This document shows positions 81 through 19,080 of a stretch of DNA of 35,601 bases, one piece after another. Within the stretch, counting starts at the first letter, position 1. The number at the start of each line of letters is the position of its first letter. Below the pieces are notes generated by a model. The model did no database searches and was not told the origin of the DNA. It saw only the letters and a list, made by a program, of their open reading frames with translations. Origin of the DNA: Actinomycetota bacterium (GTDB lineage: Bacteria; Actinomycetota; Acidimicrobiia; Acidimicrobiales; Ilumatobacteraceae). Location of the stretch: contig SXPV01000012.1 of the NCBI GenBank assembly GCA_005793215.1, forward strand, positions 1-35,601, given 5' to 3'. Position numbers and translations under genes: made by a program.

Positions 81-833
81 ATGGTAGAAATAAAAGTCCT
101 AATTGCTGTTCCGACGTACAACGAGTGCGAAAACATCTTGCAGTTGTGCAAACGAATCACACAGGTTCTACCGAATAGTGACATCGTCGTGCTCGATGAT
201 AGTTCGCCTGATGGAACCGCCGAGATAGTCCGAGAGATTGCAAGATCAAACCCAAGAGTTCGTCTTTTTTCGCGAAATCAGAAGTTGGGAATTGGTTCAG
301 CACACAAGGAGGCGTTCCGGCAGGCTATCGCGTGCAATGCTGATGTCCTCGTGACTCTGGATGCAGATCTTACACACGACCCAGAGGACATCCCGAAACT
401 TCTCGATGCGCTAAAAGTAGCGGACGTAGTCGTAGGTTCTCGATTTATGAGAGGCGGTGGTCTGCAGGATTGGACGCCGATTCGGCGCACCTTAACACAT
501 CTTGGACACATTGCAACAAAATATCTGCTTCGAGTTCCGTTTGATGCCACCGGCGCACTTCGCGCATACCGGATGACTGATTTAGCGGTCAAACTACCCG
601 AAGCACCGTTGCACAACGGATACCCTTTCCTTTATCAAAGTTTGACTTGGTTCGTCCGCCACGACTCATCAGTGGCTGAGGTACCAATCGTTTTGACAGC
701 ACGGGCTTACGGATCATCGAAAATGCAGACCCGAGATGTTCTATTAGGACTCCTGGGCTTGTTCAAATTCGCCTTAATGCATCGCAAGTCCTTTCGCAGA
801 TATCGAGTTTCAAGGATTGGGGGCAAACAATGA
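81..833 (+). CDS. DPM1-like family 2 glycosyltransferase (polyprenol-phosphate mannosyltransferase-like)
   Basis: ORF with VAVPTYNE-type N-terminus (LIAVPTYNECENI), VVLDDSSPDGT, TLDADLTHDPEDI and VVGSRFMRGG motifs typical of DPM1/GT2. Confidence 0.9.
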   Translation: MVEIKVLIAVPTYNECENILQLCKRITQVLPNSDIVVLDDSSPDGTAEIVREIARSNPRVRLFSRNQKLGIGSAHKEAFRQAIACNADVLVTLDADLTHDPEDIPKLLDALKVADVVVGSRFMRGGGLQDWTPIRRTLTHLGHIATKYLLRVPFDATGALRAYRMTDLAVKLPEAPLHNGYPFLYQSLTWFVRHDSSVAEVPIVLTARAYGSSKMQTRDVLLGLLGLFKFALMHRKSFRRYRVSRIGGKQ

Positions 834-1510
834 CAATCTCAAGCAATGACTGGGACGCATACTGGAGTCAGCAGGGGTCAGTTACCAAGACATACGGAAG
901 AATCGCAAACTTCTACCGACGATGGATTATTCCACGGAGCCTCAAACAAACTCTAAGGAAAACCGTGGCCCCAGGGTCAACTTTGCTCCATGCTGGCTCC
1001 GGGGGTGGAGAAATTGATGTTCACTTGATTGAACGATGGAATCTCGTTGCAATTGATTTCTCAAGAAGAGCCGTTGAAGAACATCGGAATAGACACATCA
1101 ATGTGAGGCAGAGTGACCTCATCAGTCAAGCTGATTTATTCTCGCTTCCCTATCAGGACGAAACTTTTGATGGAGTTTTCAATCTTGGCGTTATGGAGCA
1201 CTTTACCGACCAGCAGATTGCCGCAGCGCTCCGTGAGATGCGGCGAGTCACCAAGCAGGGAGGAGTACTCATATTGTATTGGCCACCAATTTGGGGGCTG
1301 TCGGTGCTGGCTCTCAAGATTGCTAAATCCATTCTGCAGTTGGAGAGACGACGAGGTATCGCTCTCCATCCGCCTGAGATAAACCTCATGCGCTCGCGCC
1401 ACCAGTGTTCCAAGTGGATGATAGACGCAGGCCTACAACTTGAGCGCTTTTCTTTTGGAATCGGAGACCTTTTCACGCATCAAATTATCGTAGCTCGAAG
1501 GATGAAATGA
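830..1510 (+). CDS. class I SAM-dependent methyltransferase
   Basis: LLHAGSGGGEIDVHL (motif I-like), FDGVFNLGVMEHF, LREMRRVTKQGGVLIL. Start overlaps previous stop (ATGA). Confidence 0.85.
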   Translation: MTISSNDWDAYWSQQGSVTKTYGRIANFYRRWIIPRSLKQTLRKTVAPGSTLLHAGSGGGEIDVHLIERWNLVAIDFSRRAVEEHRNRHINVRQSDLISQADLFSLPYQDETFDGVFNLGVMEHFTDQQIAAALREMRRVTKQGGVLILYWPPIWGLSVLALKIAKSILQLERRRGIALHPPEINLMRSRHQCSKWMIDAGLQLERFSFGIGDLFTHQIIVARRMK

Positions 1511-2385
1511 CAAACAAATCAAATTGCCCAGTTTGCTTAGGCGTCGATTCGTTTGAACGATATCCGGATGAACTTCATGGTTTGTCGCCAACTGTCGATT
1601 ACAAATTCACACCCACCACACGACTTACGTATGAAATAGTTGAATGTTCAGATTGCGGTCATCAATACGTTTCTTCTGCCCCGCAAGTTGAGATCCTGTA
1701 CACCGAAAACGAGGATGAGACATACCTCGCAGCTCAGCAACAACGAGAGAAGTCTGCCGAAGCGTGGCTTCAAATAGTTACATCGGCTGCGCCACCAAGT
1801 AGCGCACGGACTTTGTTGGACATCGGCTGTGCGACAGGAATATTCTTAGACAAGGCTTCTCGGTTTTATGTCGTCTGTGGAGTTGAATTGTCTGAATGGG
1901 CTTCCAAAATCGCATCTAGACAACATGAGGTATGGCGGCAACCAGTCTCCCAACAAACCACGACCAGAAGATTTGATATTGTAACCATGTGGGGTGTAAT
2001 CGAGCACCTCTCTAATCCACGGGACGAGATCAATGCAATTTCGGAGTTGACAAATGTCGACGGATTGCTCTTCATCTATACTGGAGATCGCGCCGCTTTC
2101 TTACCTCGCCTTCTCAAGAAGAAGTGGTGGTGGTATCAAGGAATGCATATTCAGTATTTCTCCAAATCGGGATTGCGACAACTCTTGGAAACGTCGGGAT
2201 TTGAGGTTGTAGGAACGCGTAATCTGCCAATCTTCTTCTCACTTCGTTCTCTAGCCCAGTCAATGAATCGATACGCTTTGCTCAAGCCATTCGTCTGGAT
2301 CCTGAGCAAGCGTCCATTTTCAAGACTTACAATACGATTGACTCTCTCGGGTGAGATGTTGATGATTGCCCGCAAGGTTGGATAG
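1507..2385 (+). CDS. class I SAM-dependent methyltransferase with N-terminal zinc-finger-like CPVC...CSDCGH segment
   Basis: LLDIGCATGIFLDKA, FDIVTMWGVIEHLSNP, N-terminal CPVC/CSDCG pairs. ATGA overlap with upstream gene. Confidence 0.85.
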   Translation: MTNKSNCPVCLGVDSFERYPDELHGLSPTVDYKFTPTTRLTYEIVECSDCGHQYVSSAPQVEILYTENEDETYLAAQQQREKSAEAWLQIVTSAAPPSSARTLLDIGCATGIFLDKASRFYVVCGVELSEWASKIASRQHEVWRQPVSQQTTTRRFDIVTMWGVIEHLSNPRDEINAISELTNVDGLLFIYTGDRAAFLPRLLKKKWWWYQGMHIQYFSKSGLRQLLETSGFEVVGTRNLPIFFSLRSLAQSMNRYALLKPFVWILSKRPFSRLTIRLTLSGEMLMIARKVG

Positions 2386-13076: not shown

Positions 13077-13628
13077 TCAGCTGCCAACGACAACTGGCTT
13101 TCCTTTCCGTTCTGCGGCGGCACTCGCATCGAGCGACCGCGTGCCTTCGCCTCGCCAGCGGGCTCCCATATCTTCGTTCTTGATGCGCTCCTGCAGGAGC
13201 ACGATGCCTTCAAGCAACGCTTCGGGTCTTGGCGGACAACCTGGTACATAGACATCCACCGGAATGATTTGGTCGACACCCTTGGTGACCGAGTACGAAT
13301 CCCAGTACGGCCCACCACAGTTGGCGCAACTGCCCATGCTGATCACATACTTCGGCTCGGGCATCTGTTCGTACAGACGTTTGATCGCGGGAGCCATCTT
13401 GTCGGTGACGGTTCCAGAAATCACCACGAGGTCGGCTTGACGTGGACTTGCCGGCAATGGAATAACCCCAAGTCGCATTACGTCGTAGCGCGGCGAGCCG
13501 AATGCTGCACCCATCTCGATTGCGCAACATGCAAGACCCCATTGGTACACCCACATGCTGTACGAGCGCCCCAAGTTGAACAACGCCGACAACGGGCGAG
13601 GCATACGACCGCGTTCCACTAGACCCAT
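13077..13628 (-). CDS. nuoB: NADH-quinone oxidoreductase subunit B (cluster 2)
   Basis: [68 protein letters not shown]. Start trimmed to ATG at 13628. Confidence 0.93.
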
Positions 13629-14005
13629 CGCAACACTCCCTTGCGCCACGCGTACACCAGACCGAGCAACAAGACGAACACGAACACACCCATCTCCACC
13701 AAACCAAAGGTGCCGTAGCGCTCGAGCTGCGTGGCCCATGGGAAGATGAACACGGCTTCGACGTCGAACACCACGAACAACAACGCAAAGATGTAGTAGC
13801 GCACCTGGCTCTGCGACCAACCTTCACCAACGGGGTCGACACCGCTTTCATAGGTGAGGAGTTTCTCGTGACCCGGTCGTGACGGGCGCACCAGCGACGA
13901 CACCCACAGCAGCAGCCCCGCCAGTGCCACCGCAGCAATACCGAACCAGCCAACGGTCAGGTACGAACGCAGAAAATCCGACACGCCAGACATACCCACA
14001 GACAT
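13619..14005 (-). CDS. nuoA: NADH-quinone oxidoreductase subunit A (cluster 2)
   Basis: [43 protein letters not shown]. Confidence 0.92.
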
Positions 14006-14018
14006 CGGGAAAAAACTA

Positions 14019-14119
14019 CTACGCGGCTACTTCGCCGAGAAACCAGTCGACCAGCCGAGTAGTGGCAGGTGCCCTGGCAGCCACCTGATCTATGGACATT
14101 TCACAAAGGTGCTTGGCGT
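14019..14119 (-). pseudogene. Displaced 3' fragment of the class I glutamine amidotransferase gene (C-terminal ~31 codons, in-frame stop)
   Basis: Reverse-strand translation AKHLCEMSIDQVAARAPATTRLVDWFLGEVAA* versus intact gene C-terminus AKHLCEMSVDQVAARAPASTRLVDWFLGEVA*. Confidence 0.9.
14026..14119. repeat. Direct repeat, left copy (94 bp, 90/94 identical to 16454-16547)
   Basis: Manual base-by-base alignment at constant offset 2428; 4 substitutions, no gaps. Confidence 0.95.
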
Positions 14120-14188
14120 AGTGTGGGAATTGGTCAAGACAGTTCAGGCTGCGCGACCCGACTTATCACAATAAGACACCTTTTGACC

Positions 14189-16444
14189 GTGCACACTTCT
14201 TTCCACAACCAAGTGCTCTCCCGCTCGGAAGTTCCAGAACTATTGCTGCTTGCTGGGGTGTTGGCACCAGCATTTGCCTACCTTGATGTTCCTCTATGGA
14301 ATGCACTGTTGTTCAGTCTGGCGGTGATATCCCAGGCGGCATTCGGAACGGTGATTCTGACGCGAATCTTTAAAGGGGTTCCTGCGTCGCTGTTGTTGCT
14401 GCTCGGTCCTGGCCTGATTCTGGGCGGGGCGCTTTCGTTTGCACTGTTCCAAATTGTTGCTCGGGGAGTTCTCGGGCTTGTCGTCGTGGTCATGGTGGGG
14501 TTCGCCTCGGTGGTGTACTTGCTTCGCGCACCGAACTGGCAACCCCTCGGATCTGAACGCTTATGGATTCTTGGACAGGTAGTCGGACTAGCGGCACTGG
14601 CATTGACGTGGGAGTTTCCTGAACTGCTGCCAGTTGCTATTGCCTTCTTTGTCCTTGGCTTTGTCACCGGAGACATGTTCACCACACCACGATGGGTTAA
14701 GCAGGTAGCAGCAGCCGTCGCTGCTGTCGCAATCATCACACCACTGTTCTTCCGGCAGGAGTATTGGTGGATGGTTACCGATGACTATCAATTTTTTGAG
14801 GTGCTGTCGCAACATCTTACCCACTCTGGACCATTCGCAGATTGGGGGGTTACCAACTTCAGTAGGTACCACTGGCTGTCATACGGATGGGCGGGGCTTC
14901 TCAATGAATTCGGTGGCCGACCAGAAACCTTCACCACCCTCACCCGAGTAATGCCGTTGGTCTACTCGGTCACACTGACCGGATCATTGGTGCACATGGC
15001 TGGGTACTTGAACAGAACTAGCAACTGGAATCTGAGTCTCGTGCCAGTGTGGACAATTCTGGCAATCAATCGTCTCGACTGGTCAGGCACTTCAACTGCG
15101 GGGGTGTTCGCAGTGGTAGCAGCCACTGCTGCAGTGATTCTCCTAGCCCTCGGCACAACTCAAAGTTTTGGGCGAAGAGTCCTTCTATATATGTTGTTTG
15201 GCATAGGTACTGTCTTTACGAAACTGCCTAGTCTTTTTACTGTAGTAATAATTATTCTTTGTGCAGAAACTTTTGTGCTTACTCGACAGTTTGCAACACG
15301 TCCTCGAATTCTTGTTCTGCTGTTTGGTGGTGCCGTCGCATCGTTCGGTATCATCCCATTGATCTGGCTTGCAAGCAAAGTTATTGATGGCTTTGCTTTT
15401 GCCGATGTAAACCCTGGGCTCGGAAAGATTGCAGCGTACGGACCGGGATTTGCATATCTTCTGGTCTCGCTACAGCGTCTCTGGTTAATAGTGCCAATTG
15501 TTGCCATGGTTGTTCTGGTGCTCTCTTCAGGAAAAAGAGCACCCTGCAAACGCCCGATCAACCTCTATTTATTGGGCTTGGCTCCGATCGCATTGTTGGG
15601 TGTGCTGATGGACGTCATCATGACGGGTAACGCCAACACCTATGAGTACTTCAGCGGACCGATGTACTTCGTCACCTCACTCATCCTGATGGGCATCGTT
15701 GCACCTGACTCAGCCGTTCTACTACCAGCAAGAAATCTGCGACTGTTTTGCTTGCTTGTAACTTGCGTAGTGACTTTGGGATTCTTGTGGGTTCGGCTTG
15801 GCCTAGCAGAAAAAATATGGCATCTTGCCCAATCACAACTTGGGCAGGATACATCTATCCCTCAGTTTCTTTCCACCGATAGCCGAATCAGCGCTGCTGC
15901 CGTCACCATAGTCATCCTGAGCGCCACTACGAGAAGCAAGTGGTACTCTCCCCGACTCGTATTGGGATCGCTACTAGTGTCTCTTTCAATTCTGACTCTC
16001 TACGGATACTGGAATAGTGCGGTAAGCGAGCTTCAACGCGAGCGGGAACCATCCGAAATTGCAACAAGCCTGGGCCAACTAGACAATCAATTAGTTGGTC
16101 GTTGGCTTCGATCCAACACCTTGCCAACTGACCTGATTGCTACCAACGAGTTATTCGACTCCTCCACCGGGCAGCCACTCAGTGATTTTTCACTAGCCGC
16201 CTGGTCCAAGCGAGAGTTTTTAGTTTTGGGTCCTAGTTTTCTTGGTGATTATTCTCGGCTCAGATCCCAGCTTGACGTGTCCCAGCAATTCGGATACGCC
16301 CCATCGCAGACTGAAGCCGAGCAACTGCGTCAGTGGGGCGTCAAATGGTTCGTGGTTGACCGTTTGGATAGTTCATTCAATGACTGGGAAAATACTTGGG
16401 ATGTCCATTACGCCAACGAACACTTTTTTGTCGTCAAGATATAA
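14189..16444 (+). CDS. Polytopic membrane protein, possibly a GT-C superfamily glycosyltransferase
   Basis: Many hydrophobic segments; acidic TDDYQFFEVLSQHL in a predicted early extramembrane loop, reminiscent of GT-C. The track start at 14069 lies inside the repeat/pseudogene; GTG at 14189 (VHTSFHNQ) is a plausible start. Confidence 0.65.
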   Translation: MHTSFHNQVLSRSEVPELLLLAGVLAPAFAYLDVPLWNALLFSLAVISQAAFGTVILTRIFKGVPASLLLLLGPGLILGGALSFALFQIVARGVLGLVVVVMVGFASVVYLLRAPNWQPLGSERLWILGQVVGLAALALTWEFPELLPVAIAFFVLGFVTGDMFTTPRWVKQVAAAVAAVAIITPLFFRQEYWWMVTDDYQFFEVLSQHLTHSGPFADWGVTNFSRYHWLSYGWAGLLNEFGGRPETFTTLTRVMPLVYSVTLTGSLVHMAGYLNRTSNWNLSLVPVWTILAINRLDWSGTSTAGVFAVVAATAAVILLALGTTQSFGRRVLLYMLFGIGTVFTKLPSLFTVVIIILCAETFVLTRQFATRPRILVLLFGGAVASFGIIPLIWLASKVIDGFAFADVNPGLGKIAAYGPGFAYLLVSLQRLWLIVPIVAMVVLVLSSGKRAPCKRPINLYLLGLAPIALLGVLMDVIMTGNANTYEYFSGPMYFVTSLILMGIVAPDSAVLLPARNLRLFCLLVTCVVTLGFLWVRLGLAEKIWHLAQSQLGQDTSIPQFLSTDSRISAAAVTIVILSATTRSKWYSPRLVLGSLLVSLSILTLYGYWNSAVSELQREREPSEIATSLGQLDNQLVGRWLRSNTLPTDLIATNELFDSSTGQPLSDFSLAAWSKREFLVLGPSFLGDYSRLRSQLDVSQQFGYAPSQTEAEQLRQWGVKWFVVDRLDSSFNDWENTWDVHYANEHFFVVKI

Positions 16445-16449
16445 AAACT

Positions 16450-17118
16450 TTAAGCTACTTCGCCGAGAAACCAGTCGACCAGCCGAGTAGAGGCAGGTGC
16501 CCTAGCAGCCACCTGATCCACGGACATTTCACAAAGGTGCTTGGCGTCAATCCCGAGTCGTGACAGCTCGGTGGTTCCCGTGCCGGTGCTCCATCGGGTG
16601 ATGATGTCCTGCGTCGCCTCGGGGTGGAACTGTGTGGCAAACACCCGCTTGCCCAACATGGCCTGAGGACCAACATCGTTGACTGCTACCGCCCGCAGAC
16701 TCGACGGAACAGTAAAGACGTCATAGTGCCATTGCAGCCATGTGCCAGCGAGAAGGTCGGGATACGCGGTGCTCGATACGTCGTGCCACCCGACTTCTGG
16801 TGTCTGTGCACGTGTGACCGTTCCTCCCAGGGCGTGTGAGATGAGTTGAGCACCGTAACAAATTCCAAAAATTGGGACACCGCGCTGCATGGCGGTAGTA
16901 ACCAAATCCACTTCCGCAGCAACCTCCTTTTCGTTGCCTTCCGAATACACCGACCATTCGGACCCGAGCAACAGTACGAGATCCACTCCGGCCAACGACT
17001 TCCATTCACGCGGATACTCGCGTTCATTTCGCTCAAGTCCGAAGCCAACCTCACTGAGCCGCGATCCAACCAAGCCTGGATCGGCATCACCGCGGTTGCC
17101 AACAATGAGTGCACGCAC
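16450..17118 (-). CDS. class I glutamine amidotransferase (GMP synthase GATase-like)
   Basis: IFGICYGAQLISHALGG nucleophile elbow and QFHPEAT catalytic His/Glu. Confidence 0.88.
   Translation of the reverse strand: MRALIVGNRGDADPGLVGSRLSEVGFGLERNEREYPREWKSLAGVDLVLLLGSEWSVYSEGNEKEVAAEVDLVTTAMQRGVPIFGICYGAQLISHALGGTVTRAQTPEVGWHDVSSTAYPDLLAGTWLQWHYDVFTVPSSLRAVAVNDVGPQAMLGKRVFATQFHPEATQDIITRWSTGTGTTELSRLGIDAKHLCEMSVDQVAARAPASTRLVDWFLGEVA
16454..16547. repeat. Direct repeat, right copy, forming the 3' end of the intact amidotransferase gene
   Basis: See left copy 14026-14119. Confidence 0.95.
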
Positions 17119-17138
17119 AGCGATACCGTAGTTGTTGC

Positions 17139-18359
17139 ATGGGTCGCAGTGGCGCCGTCGAGATTTCCCTCGAACACGTACGCCATATCGCCGAGCGCGA
17201 CCGCCGAATCGTCACCCACACCCCTGTCACCCCGTCGGCACACCTGAGCGAACGGTGTGGCGGCTCCGTCGTCTTGAAGGCCGAGAATCTCCAGCGCACG
17301 GGTGCATTCAAGATTCGCGGCGCGATGAACAAACTGTTCACCCTTGGTGACAGTGCACGCAAAGGAGTGGTTGCAGGTAGCGCAGGCAACCATGCGCAAG
17401 CCCTGGCTTTTGCTGCTCGACAATTTGGTGTGCCGTGCGAGATCTATGTTCCTGCCGGCGCATCACTCGCCAAGATTGCAGCGTGTCGCGGCTACGGGGC
17501 AACGGTGCACGAAGGAGGCGACAGCCTCGATAATGCAGTCACACTGGCCCAGGCACGAGCCCAAGAAACCGGCATGGTGTTCTGTCATCCGTACGACGAC
17601 CCCGTAGTGGTCGCGGGCCAGGCAACACTCGGAGTCGAGCTCATCGACGACATTCCCGATCTCGCGCAGGTCATCGTGCCACTTGGTGGTGGTGGGCTGC
17701 TGGGTGGAGTTGCACTGACGGTAAAACAGTTCGACCCATCGATTCGAGTCATCGGCGTACAGATCTCTTCCTGCGCTCCGTACATCTACGGCAAGGCCCC
17801 ACAGGGACCGGTTCCCACGTTGGCCGACGGAATTGCGGTGAAGGTACCCGGAGTTGTCACTGCCCCGTTGATCGAGAAGTGGGTGGATGACATCGTCGAT
17901 GTTGATGAAGACAGCGTGGCCGACGCAATGATGCTGCTGCTCGAGCGATCAAAGTACTTCGTCGAGGGCGGCGGAGCAGTTGGCGTTTCGGCACTGCTCA
18001 ACGGAAGGGTCACTCCCGCCGAGCGCGGCTCCACCTGCGTGGTGCTCTCCGGAGGCAACGCCGATCTTGGCCTTCTCACCGGCTTGGTACGTCGACACGA
18101 GACCAATCGTGGCCGCCGCTTGATCGTGTTTGCGCGCATCAGCGACCGCCCGGGTGGACTGGCCCGTCTGTTGACCCTGTTTGCCGAACACGGTGCAAAC
18201 CTCATCGAGGTGGAACACGTTCGCGAGGGTGTCGATCTTCACGTGCGTGAAACCGGCGTGCAAGTGGTGCTCGAAGTTCGCGGTCGAGACCACGCAGAAT
18301 CACTGATCGCCGGAGCCAAGGCCGATGGCTACGAAATCTCCGAAGTCACCGGACGCTAG
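17139..18359 (+). CDS. ilvA: threonine dehydratase (PLP-dependent) with C-terminal ACT domain
   Basis: VLKAENLQRTGAFKIRGAMNKL (PLP lysine), GSAGNHAQALAFAA, VPLGGGGLLGG, C-terminal ACT-like segment (ISDRPGGLARLLTLFAEHGANLIEVEH). Start at 17109 or 17139. Confidence 0.92.
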   Translation: MGRSGAVEISLEHVRHIAERDRRIVTHTPVTPSAHLSERCGGSVVLKAENLQRTGAFKIRGAMNKLFTLGDSARKGVVAGSAGNHAQALAFAARQFGVPCEIYVPAGASLAKIAACRGYGATVHEGGDSLDNAVTLAQARAQETGMVFCHPYDDPVVVAGQATLGVELIDDIPDLAQVIVPLGGGGLLGGVALTVKQFDPSIRVIGVQISSCAPYIYGKAPQGPVPTLADGIAVKVPGVVTAPLIEKWVDDIVDVDEDSVADAMMLLLERSKYFVEGGGAVGVSALLNGRVTPAERGSTCVVLSGGNADLGLLTGLVRRHETNRGRRLIVFARISDRPGGLARLLTLFAEHGANLIEVEHVREGVDLHVRETGVQVVLEVRGRDHAESLIAGAKADGYEISEVTGR

Positions 18360-19080
18360 ACAACTCGTGGCTCCACGAATTCTGCTGCCTGGAAAGCTCA
18401 CGTCGGGTGCCACCGGCGTTCGTGGTGACAGTTATTCCAATGGTCTCAAATATGCCCAAGCGATTGCTCGGGCTGGTGGTGTCACGATGACGGTGCCGCC
18501 ACTTTCCGAGGCCATTCAGCATGTTGCCGATCTCGTGGGAGCCGCTGACGGTGTACTCATTCAAGGTGGTGGTGACATCGCACCGGAGCGATACGGGGAG
18601 TCCCGTCGTAGTGACACCGTCTACGGCATTGTCCACGAACACGACGAATTCGAGATTGCCGTTGCACGCGAAGCAGTGAAGCAGAACAAGCCGTTACTCG
18701 CCATCTGCCGCGGCCTGCAGGTGCTCAACGTGGCACTCGGCGGCACCCTGCACCAAGACCTCGGAGATGTACTCCCCGACCGTGAGAGCCATTGGAACAC
18801 CTACCACCCGATTACGGTTACTGAGGGATCTCGCCTGGCAGCCGCACTTGGAACGTCGGCACCCGAACGTTCGCACTCGTTTCATCACCAAGCTTTGAAG
18901 CACGTTGCGAGTGACCTTGTCGTCGTTGCGCGCGCACCGGACGACGTCATCGAAGCGGTGGAACACGGAAGCTGCGACTTCGTGGTTGGCGTGCAGTGGC
19001 ACCCCGAAGACGACGCCGAAACGACCGAGTGCCAACAACAACTCTTCGTCAACTTCATCTCGAGGTGCAACTCCCGCTAG
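18325..19080 (+). CDS. gamma-glutamyl-gamma-aminobutyrate hydrolase family protein (class I GATase-like, PuuD/peptidase C26)
   Basis: GVLIQGGGDIAPERYGE, PLLAICRGLQVLNVALGGTLHQDL, HSFHHQA, VGVQWHPEDD. Start either ATG 18325 (35-nt overlap with ilvA) or GTG 18367. Confidence 0.88.
   Translation: MATKSPKSPDARQLVAPRILLPGKLTSGATGVRGDSYSNGLKYAQAIARAGGVTMTVPPLSEAIQHVADLVGAADGVLIQGGGDIAPERYGESRRSDTVYGIVHEHDEFEIAVAREAVKQNKPLLAICRGLQVLNVALGGTLHQDLGDVLPDRESHWNTYHPITVTEGSRLAAALGTSAPERSHSFHHQALKHVASDLVVVARAPDDVIEAVEHGSCDFVVGVQWHPEDDAETTECQQQLFVNFISRCNSR

What the first reader, a model, noticed from the sequence alone, without database searches (positions are those of the whole stretch)
14026..16547. 94-bp direct repeat flanks a single GT-C-like gene: an insertion that duplicates the 3' end of an amidotransferase gene
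Seen: 14026-14119 and 16454-16547 align without gaps with 4 mismatches (90/94). The right copy is the true C-terminal coding end of the amidotransferase (16450-17118, minus strand). The left copy encodes the same C-terminus in frame with its own stop (differences: V to I, S to T and one silent change). Everything between the copies is one AT-richer membrane protein gene. This is the footprint expected when an element integrates at a gene's 3' end and supplies a replacement 3' end, as integrative elements do at tRNA genes, but here the target is a protein-coding gene and no integrase is present. The conservative substitutions suggest two allelic lineages rather than neutral decay. Alternative: homologous exchange with DNA carrying a diverged amidotransferase allele plus cargo.
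Basis: partly seen in the sequence, partly recalled or inferred. Interest (0 to 1): 0.75.

Follow-up and report, generated by a model that had tools for sequence, protein, structure and literature searches.

The report
Swappable membrane-protein gene between duplicated ends
In a small-genome Ilumatobacteraceae bacterium, a single membrane-protein gene that comes, goes and is swapped between species sits at one chromosomal spot, flanked by two copies of a 94-base segment that seems to serve both as the end of one gene and as the upstream control region of the respiratory complex I operon.

Summary
In detail: 14026-14119 and 16454-16547 are a 90/94 direct repeat around one 751-aa, AT-richer, ~14-TM gene (here GTC). 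Across the genus the insertion is real and polymorphic: five sister genomes have clean empty sites, and two other genus-type loci carry diverged GTC alleles (54% and 70% aa) at the same junction. GTC was found nowhere else in samples of up to 397 relatives' genomes. In one sister genome the assembly graph indicates that empty and occupied alleles coexist. GTC has moved between species: dS to one allele is ~0.3 over the first 180 codons, while host genes differ by 1.1-1.6. The classical 'element brings a replacement 3' end' is only partly supported: both repeat copies are host-like in each genome and no integrase is present. In this genus the amidotransferase stop codon overlaps the conserved TAGTAG block just before nuoA, and a 19-bp run invariant at DNA level lies exactly at the repeat's inner edge. 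The repeat thus spans a segment with two likely jobs (amidotransferase C-terminus, nuo upstream region), so an insert here must duplicate it. Most likely it spreads and is lost by homologous recombination; a trans-acting site-specific recombinase is not excluded.

The parts
14026..14119 (-). left (nuoA-side) copy of the 94-bp direct repeat: native amidotransferase 3' end plus nuo upstream region; the in-frame remnant runs on to TAG at 14019-14021
   Evidence: 90/94 to the right copy; continues GCCGCGTAGTAGTTTTTTCCCGATG into nuoA exactly as in empty sites
16454..16547 (-). right copy: functional C-terminal codons of the amidotransferase gene, ending in its own TAA at 16450-16452; lacks the TAGTAGTTTT block
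14097..14116 (-). block 1, CCAAGCACCTTTGTGAAATG, at the inner edge of the left repeat copy; DNA-invariant in the genus (one last-base variant, G010)
16525..16544 (-). block 1 in the right copy (inside the amidotransferase gene)
14038..14048 (-). block 2, GACTGGTTTCT, invariant in the genus (left copy)
14012..14021 (-). block 3, TAGTAGTTTT, probable -10 region of a leaderless nuoA promoter; overlaps the native amidotransferase stop codon
   Evidence: GTAGTA block immediately upstream of nuoA in 30 of 33 loci across the family
14120..14188 (+). left end of the insert, non-coding, homologous to that of G120:C90 (51/69 identical) but not to that of G008
   Evidence: z 11.7 against 1.0
14189..16444 (+). 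GTC: 751-aa polytopic membrane protein, possible GT-C glycosyltransferase; the cargo
   Evidence: alleles in G008 and G120:C90
16450..17118 (-). class-I glutamine amidotransferase-like gene (host core gene, target of the insertion)
   Evidence: PF00117 E 5.5e-16; syntenic in genus and outgroups
13619..14005 (-). nuoA, first gene of the nuo operon, same strand as the amidotransferase and directly downstream of it in empty sites

Best explanation
This is a presence/absence-polymorphic, horizontally exchanged single-gene insertion at one fixed junction, amidotransferase-nuoA, of a streamlined Ilumatobacteraceae genus. In this genus the last ~31 amidotransferase codons overlap the upstream region of the nuo operon: block 1, block 2 and the TAGTAG block at the stop codon. 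An insert between the two genes is tolerated only if this shared ~94-bp segment is present on both sides, the right copy as the amidotransferase C-terminus and the left copy as the nuo upstream region. Alleles then move between strains and species, and are lost, by ordinary homologous recombination through the repeats and the flanking core genes. Shown: repeat, empty and occupied sites, gene mobility, DNA-level invariance of block 1, overlap of the stop codon with the TAGTAG block. Inferred: promoter function of the segment, selection for keeping both copies, homologous recombination as the agent, a surface-glycan role for GTC.
For: Empty sites in G001, G002, G004, G009 and G012 and in outgroup contigs L029 and L031. 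GTC alleles at the same site in G008:C75 and G120:C90. GTC dS G000-C90 ~0.3 over codons 1-180 against 1.15 (amidotransferase) and 1.64 (ilvA); conversely GTC dS 2.3 to G008 although G008 is the closer host (nuoD dS 0.68). Both repeat copies are host-like. G008 contigs C38 (amidotransferase) and C75 (GTC-left copy-nuoA) overlap by exactly 55 bp, starting just after the last mismatch between copies, as expected of a k=55 assembly graph in which empty and occupied alleles merge. Contig ends cluster at the site in 6 of 12 genomes, P ~6e-7. GTAGTA block before nuoA in 30/33 loci; amidotransferase-nuoA distance 8-20 bp in this genus against 54-154 bp in nearly all other family members with the same order. 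Six consecutive invariant codons (193-198), next longest run three. Only the two Xer-type tyrosine recombinases were found in nearly all genus genomes.
Against: No transcription start data; block 1 lies ~100 bp upstream of nuoA, farther than a core promoter, and its palindromic partner is missing. Recombination with donor flanks should leave some donor-like sequence in one copy, and none is seen. The origin of the first duplication is not explained. The sharp left junction exactly at the DNA-invariant block in three loci is also what an attachment core would give.
Confidence: 0.5

Rival explanations
1. Site-specific integration: the insert is a non-autonomous element whose attachment core is block 1 (CCAAGCACCTTTGTGAAATG), moved by a tyrosine recombinase acting in trans (Xer-like or from a helper element), and the 94-bp identity block restores the gene end, as in islands at tRNA genes, guaA or rplL.
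For: The left copy starts exactly at block 1 in three loci with two unrelated insert ends. Block 1 is invariant at DNA level in the genus; outside it only 12/126 comparable codons are invariant. The identity block ends at the stop codon. Empty sites are precise. Integration at 3' ends of housekeeping genes with the repeat restoring the gene is well known (PMC5704250).
Against: No recombinase in the insert. Right copies should be donor-like beyond the core but are host-like. The core was not found in viral contigs, nor at other sites in the genus. No clear inverted arms. A generic actinobacterial dif-type pattern (from memory) found nothing convincing, so a Xer site could not be compared.
Confidence: 0.25
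2. One ancient insertion inherited vertically and lost repeatedly, with the two copies kept alike by gene conversion; no horizontal movement of GTC.
For: Same site, orientation and junction in all occupied genomes; copies more alike within than between genomes; GTC confined to this site.
Against: GTC dS is far below host dS for G000-C90 and above it for G000-G008, so vertical descent alone fails. Gene conversion with repeated loss may still be part of the story.
Confidence: 0.15
3. Long target-site duplication made by a transposon-like insertion.
For: Both copies are host-like, as a target duplication would be.
Against: 94 bp is far longer than usual target duplications, there are no inverted repeats and no transposase, and the same boundary recurs in three loci.
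Confidence: 0.05
4. Assembly artefact or chimera.
For: The genome is a fragmented draft (143 contigs).
Against: Same gene and junction in separate draft genomes, with allele-specific differences between copies.
Confidence: 0.02

Closest known systems
Integrative mobilizable elements and genomic islands at the 3' end of protein-coding genes (guaA, rplL, rpmE; PMC5704250)
   Same: Insertion at a gene's 3' end, direct repeat restoring the C-terminus, precise empty sites, foreign cargo
   Different: No recombinase or mobilization gene, a single cargo gene, both repeat copies host-like, repeat also covers the next operon's upstream region
[quoted passage not shown] 2017, PMC5635113)
   Same: Fixed spot between core genes, rapid allele turnover, no integrase, cargo incongruent with host genes
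   Different: Here a direct repeat of shared coding and upstream sequence flanks the cargo and gives a built-in loss route
Rex- or CRP-controlled nuo promoters of Actinobacteria (S. avermitilis nuoA1 operator TTGTGACCTGCTTCACAT at -42 to -16, PMC5355995; Crp in M. smegmatis, PMC12713383)
   Same: Several other genera of the family carry TTTGTGAGCCGATTCACA-like palindromes at the equivalent place before nuoA
   Different: The window's genus lacks the palindrome there; only a TTTGTGAAAT half-site exists in block 1, inside the amidotransferase gene

Membership tests
Site-specifically integrated element (IME/genomic island) at a gene 3' end | direct repeat that restores the end of the target gene | tested here: met
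   90/94, in frame, to the stop codon
Site-specifically integrated element (IME/genomic island) at a gene 3' end | precise empty sites in relatives | tested here: met
   five genomes of the genus plus outgroups
Site-specifically integrated element (IME/genomic island) at a gene 3' end | recombinase encoded by the element | tested here: not met
   single long ORF without Pfam match; elsewhere in the genus essentially two Xer-type recombinases per genome
Site-specifically integrated element (IME/genomic island) at a gene 3' end | element-borne end differs from the host's own end | tested here: not met
   distance matrix: copies closest to each other or to the host's relatives
MGE-free hotspot diversified by homologous recombination | no mobile-element genes, cargo between core genes | tested here: met
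MGE-free hotspot diversified by homologous recombination | cargo history incongruent with host genes | tested here: met
   dS comparison
MGE-free hotspot diversified by homologous recombination | raised recombination in flanking core genes | not tested
   needs several conspecific genomes; one genome per species is held
Transposon insertion with target-site duplication | terminal inverted repeats and short target duplication | tested here: not met
   no inverted repeats, 94-bp direct repeat
Xer-dependent integrative element (IMEX) | dif-like site at the junction | tested here: inconclusive
   dif of this genus not found with a generic pattern, so no comparison
GT-C glycosyltransferase | polytopic membrane fold with acidic motif in an early loop and a soluble C-terminal domain | tested here: inconclusive
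   14 TM segments and an invariant TDDY motif, but no Pfam, NCBIfam or PDB match and an unusable structure model, pLDDT 42

The most novel reading that the evidence does not exclude
Block 1 (CCAAGCACCTTTGTGAAATG) is the core of an unknown site-specific recombination system that moves single membrane-protein genes into one coding-gene end in trans, with no recombinase in the cassette, and that coexists with a nuo control site in the same codons.
Probability: 0.15. Interest if true: 0.7.

Novelty: new variant of a known kind. Interest (0 to 1): 0.45.

Why it matters
If right, it explains a direct repeat without invoking an integrase: in compact genomes, where one gene's 3' end doubles as the next operon's control region, any accessory gene entering the junction has to carry a duplicate of the shared segment. 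That duplicate then gives a ready route for loss by recombination, so the locus behaves as an on/off spot. It is a testable rule for finding integrase-free variable loci, and it gives freshwater Ilumatobacteraceae a concrete candidate locus for exchange of what may be a surface-glycan gene.

Tried and rejected
The core in viral contigs and GTC in viral contigs and plasmids: nothing. Search for GTC in order (397 genomes) and class (296): only the window. A generic dif pattern in the genus: nothing convincing. A further accessory insert in G012 between ilvA and the peptidase C26 gene has no flanking repeat and no similarity to GTC. An integron-cassette reading was dropped on inspection: no GTTRRRY core and no run of cassettes. 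A paper search for Ilumatobacteraceae genomic islands with glycosyltransferases gave none; two paper searches were malformed.

Full report
OBSERVATION. The right copy is the end of the amidotransferase gene 16450-17118 (-), PF00117 at 5.5e-16. Between the copies lies one gene, GTC, 14189-16444 (+), 751 aa, 14 predicted TM segments, GC 0.509 and GC3 0.521 against 0.58-0.61 and 0.59-0.76 in most neighbours. The GTC frame stays open upstream into the left repeat (start at 14069 possible), so its true start is not settled.

RELATIVES. The window is contig C54 of a draft genome of 1.53 Mb (82% complete); close relatives are labelled Ilumatobacteraceae. Thirteen genomes of the genus are held. Amidotransferase and nuoA are directly adjacent in G001, G002, G004, G009 and G012; outgroup contigs L029 and L031 have the same order with a longer spacer. 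So the empty state is most simply ancestral. Two other loci are occupied: G008:C75 (GTC fragment 54% identical, left copy, nuoA) and G120:C90 (ilvA, amidotransferase, GTC 70% identical, left copy at contig end). G120 is filed in another genus but has its own divergent amidotransferase and nuoA on contig C34, and C90 matches the window's genus (amidotransferase 95% aa to G002); I treat C90 as a misbinned contig of the window's genus (inference).

GTC IS LOCUS-BOUND. Searches of 151 family, 397 order and 296 class genomes (partly overlapping samples) found GTC only in those three loci. Viral contigs and plasmids gave nothing. Pfam, NCBIfam, PHROGs and PDB gave no credible match. 'GT-C-like' remains a guess from topology and an invariant TDDY motif.

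MOBILITY. Between the window and C90, GTC dS is 0.33, 0.30 and 0.28 in the first three 60-codon blocks and rises toward the C-terminus, where protein identity drops to about 30%. The host genes on the same contigs have dS 1.15 and 1.64. Between the window and G008, the closer host (nuoD dS 0.68), GTC dS is 2.3. This is incongruent in both directions: alleles have been exchanged between species, as mosaics with a conserved front half and divergent tail. The non-coding left end (14120-14188) is 51/69 identical to C90's and unrelated to G008's.

COEXISTENCE OF ALLELES. In G008 the amidotransferase contig C38 ends with 55 bases found in C75 just before nuoA, beginning directly after the last mismatch between the two repeat copies. 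A shared 55-mer is what a k=55 assembly graph leaves where two paths merge, so an amidotransferase-nuoA (empty) path and a GTC-nuoA (occupied) path probably coexist in that population. The alternative, a right copy with the same 17 bases past the stop and then diverging exactly at 55, needs a coincidence. Contig ends fall within ~150 bp of this site in 6 of 12 genomes (0.38 expected, P ~6e-7); the window size was chosen after the fact.

THE COPIES FOLLOW THE HOST. Right and left copies are nearest to each other in the window and in G008, and C90's right copy is 2 changes from G002 but more than 20 from the window's. The inserted gene moved between species but the flanking copies did not. The left copy continues into nuoA exactly as in empty sites, while the right copy ends at a stop followed by insert sequence.

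WHY THE REPEAT IS THERE. Across the family a GTAGTA block sits right before the nuoA ATG in 30 of 33 loci, without an obvious ribosome-binding site, as expected of a -10 region of a leaderless transcript (promoter role inferred). In nearly all other family members with this gene order the amidotransferase ends 54-154 bp upstream, and several loci of other genera carry a TTTGTGAGCCGATTCACA-like palindrome (Rex/CRP type) about 45 bp before the ATG. Rex protects -42 to -16 of nuoA1 in S. avermitilis (PMC5355995). In the window's genus the distance is 8-20 bp, and the amidotransferase stop codon is part of the TAGTAG block. Native copies in this genus share three invariant blocks: CCAAGCACCTTTGTGAAAT, GACTGGTTTCT and TAGTAGTTTT. 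The first corresponds to six consecutive codons invariant in ten genes, where the next longest run is three and only 12 of 126 other amino-acid-invariant degenerate codons are fixed. The residues there (KHLCEM) are absent from the corresponding region in other genera (read), so this is likely DNA-level constraint. The repeat runs from the first block to the stop codon: it is the stretch needed both by the amidotransferase and, on this model, by nuo. The left copy keeps all three blocks; the right copy keeps the codons and has lost the third block.

MECHANISM. Best supported: homologous recombination through the shared segment and the flanking core genes, as in hotspots without mobile elements (PMC5635113). 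Integrase-type integration would explain the sharp junction at block 1 and the DNA invariance, and follows a known pattern at gene 3' ends (PMC5704250). It predicts donor-like right copies, which are not seen, and no candidate recombinase beyond the usual Xer pair was found. How the first duplication arose is unknown.

VERDICT. A real, mobile, allelic single-gene insertion of a kind close to known ones, with an unusual and testable reason for its direct repeat.

Noticed in passing
L112 (G012:C15) 13871-17500: A different 3.6-kb insert with two large ORFs without Pfam matches (489 and 706 aa, membrane-protein-like) between ilvA and the peptidase C26 gene in G012, without flanking repeats; the amidotransferase-ilvA-C26 stretch looks like a wider insertion spot.
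   Followed up: partly
window 16450-19080 between nuoA (14005) and nuoN-like (19117): The nuo genes are split in the window: nuoA onward on one side and nuoN/nuoM-like genes on the other side of the amidotransferase-ilvA-C26 stretch, with a second set of nuoM/N-like genes downstream of nuoD on related contigs.
   Followed up: no
G120:C90 (L135): Contig probably misbinned: filed in a genome of another genus that has its own amidotransferase and nuoA on C34.
   Followed up: yes
window 14152-14188: CACCTTTTGACC in the insert's left end, conserved in C90, is a near-inverted copy of the TCACAAAGGTG part of block 1.
   Followed up: no
loci L188, L190, L192, L197, L199, L200, L205, L206: Rex/CRP-type palindrome TTTGTGAGCCGATTCACA-like just upstream of a leaderless-looking nuoA in several other genera of the family.
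   Followed up: partly
window 81-2385: A family-2 glycosyltransferase and two methyltransferase genes lie at the start of the contig.
   Followed up: no
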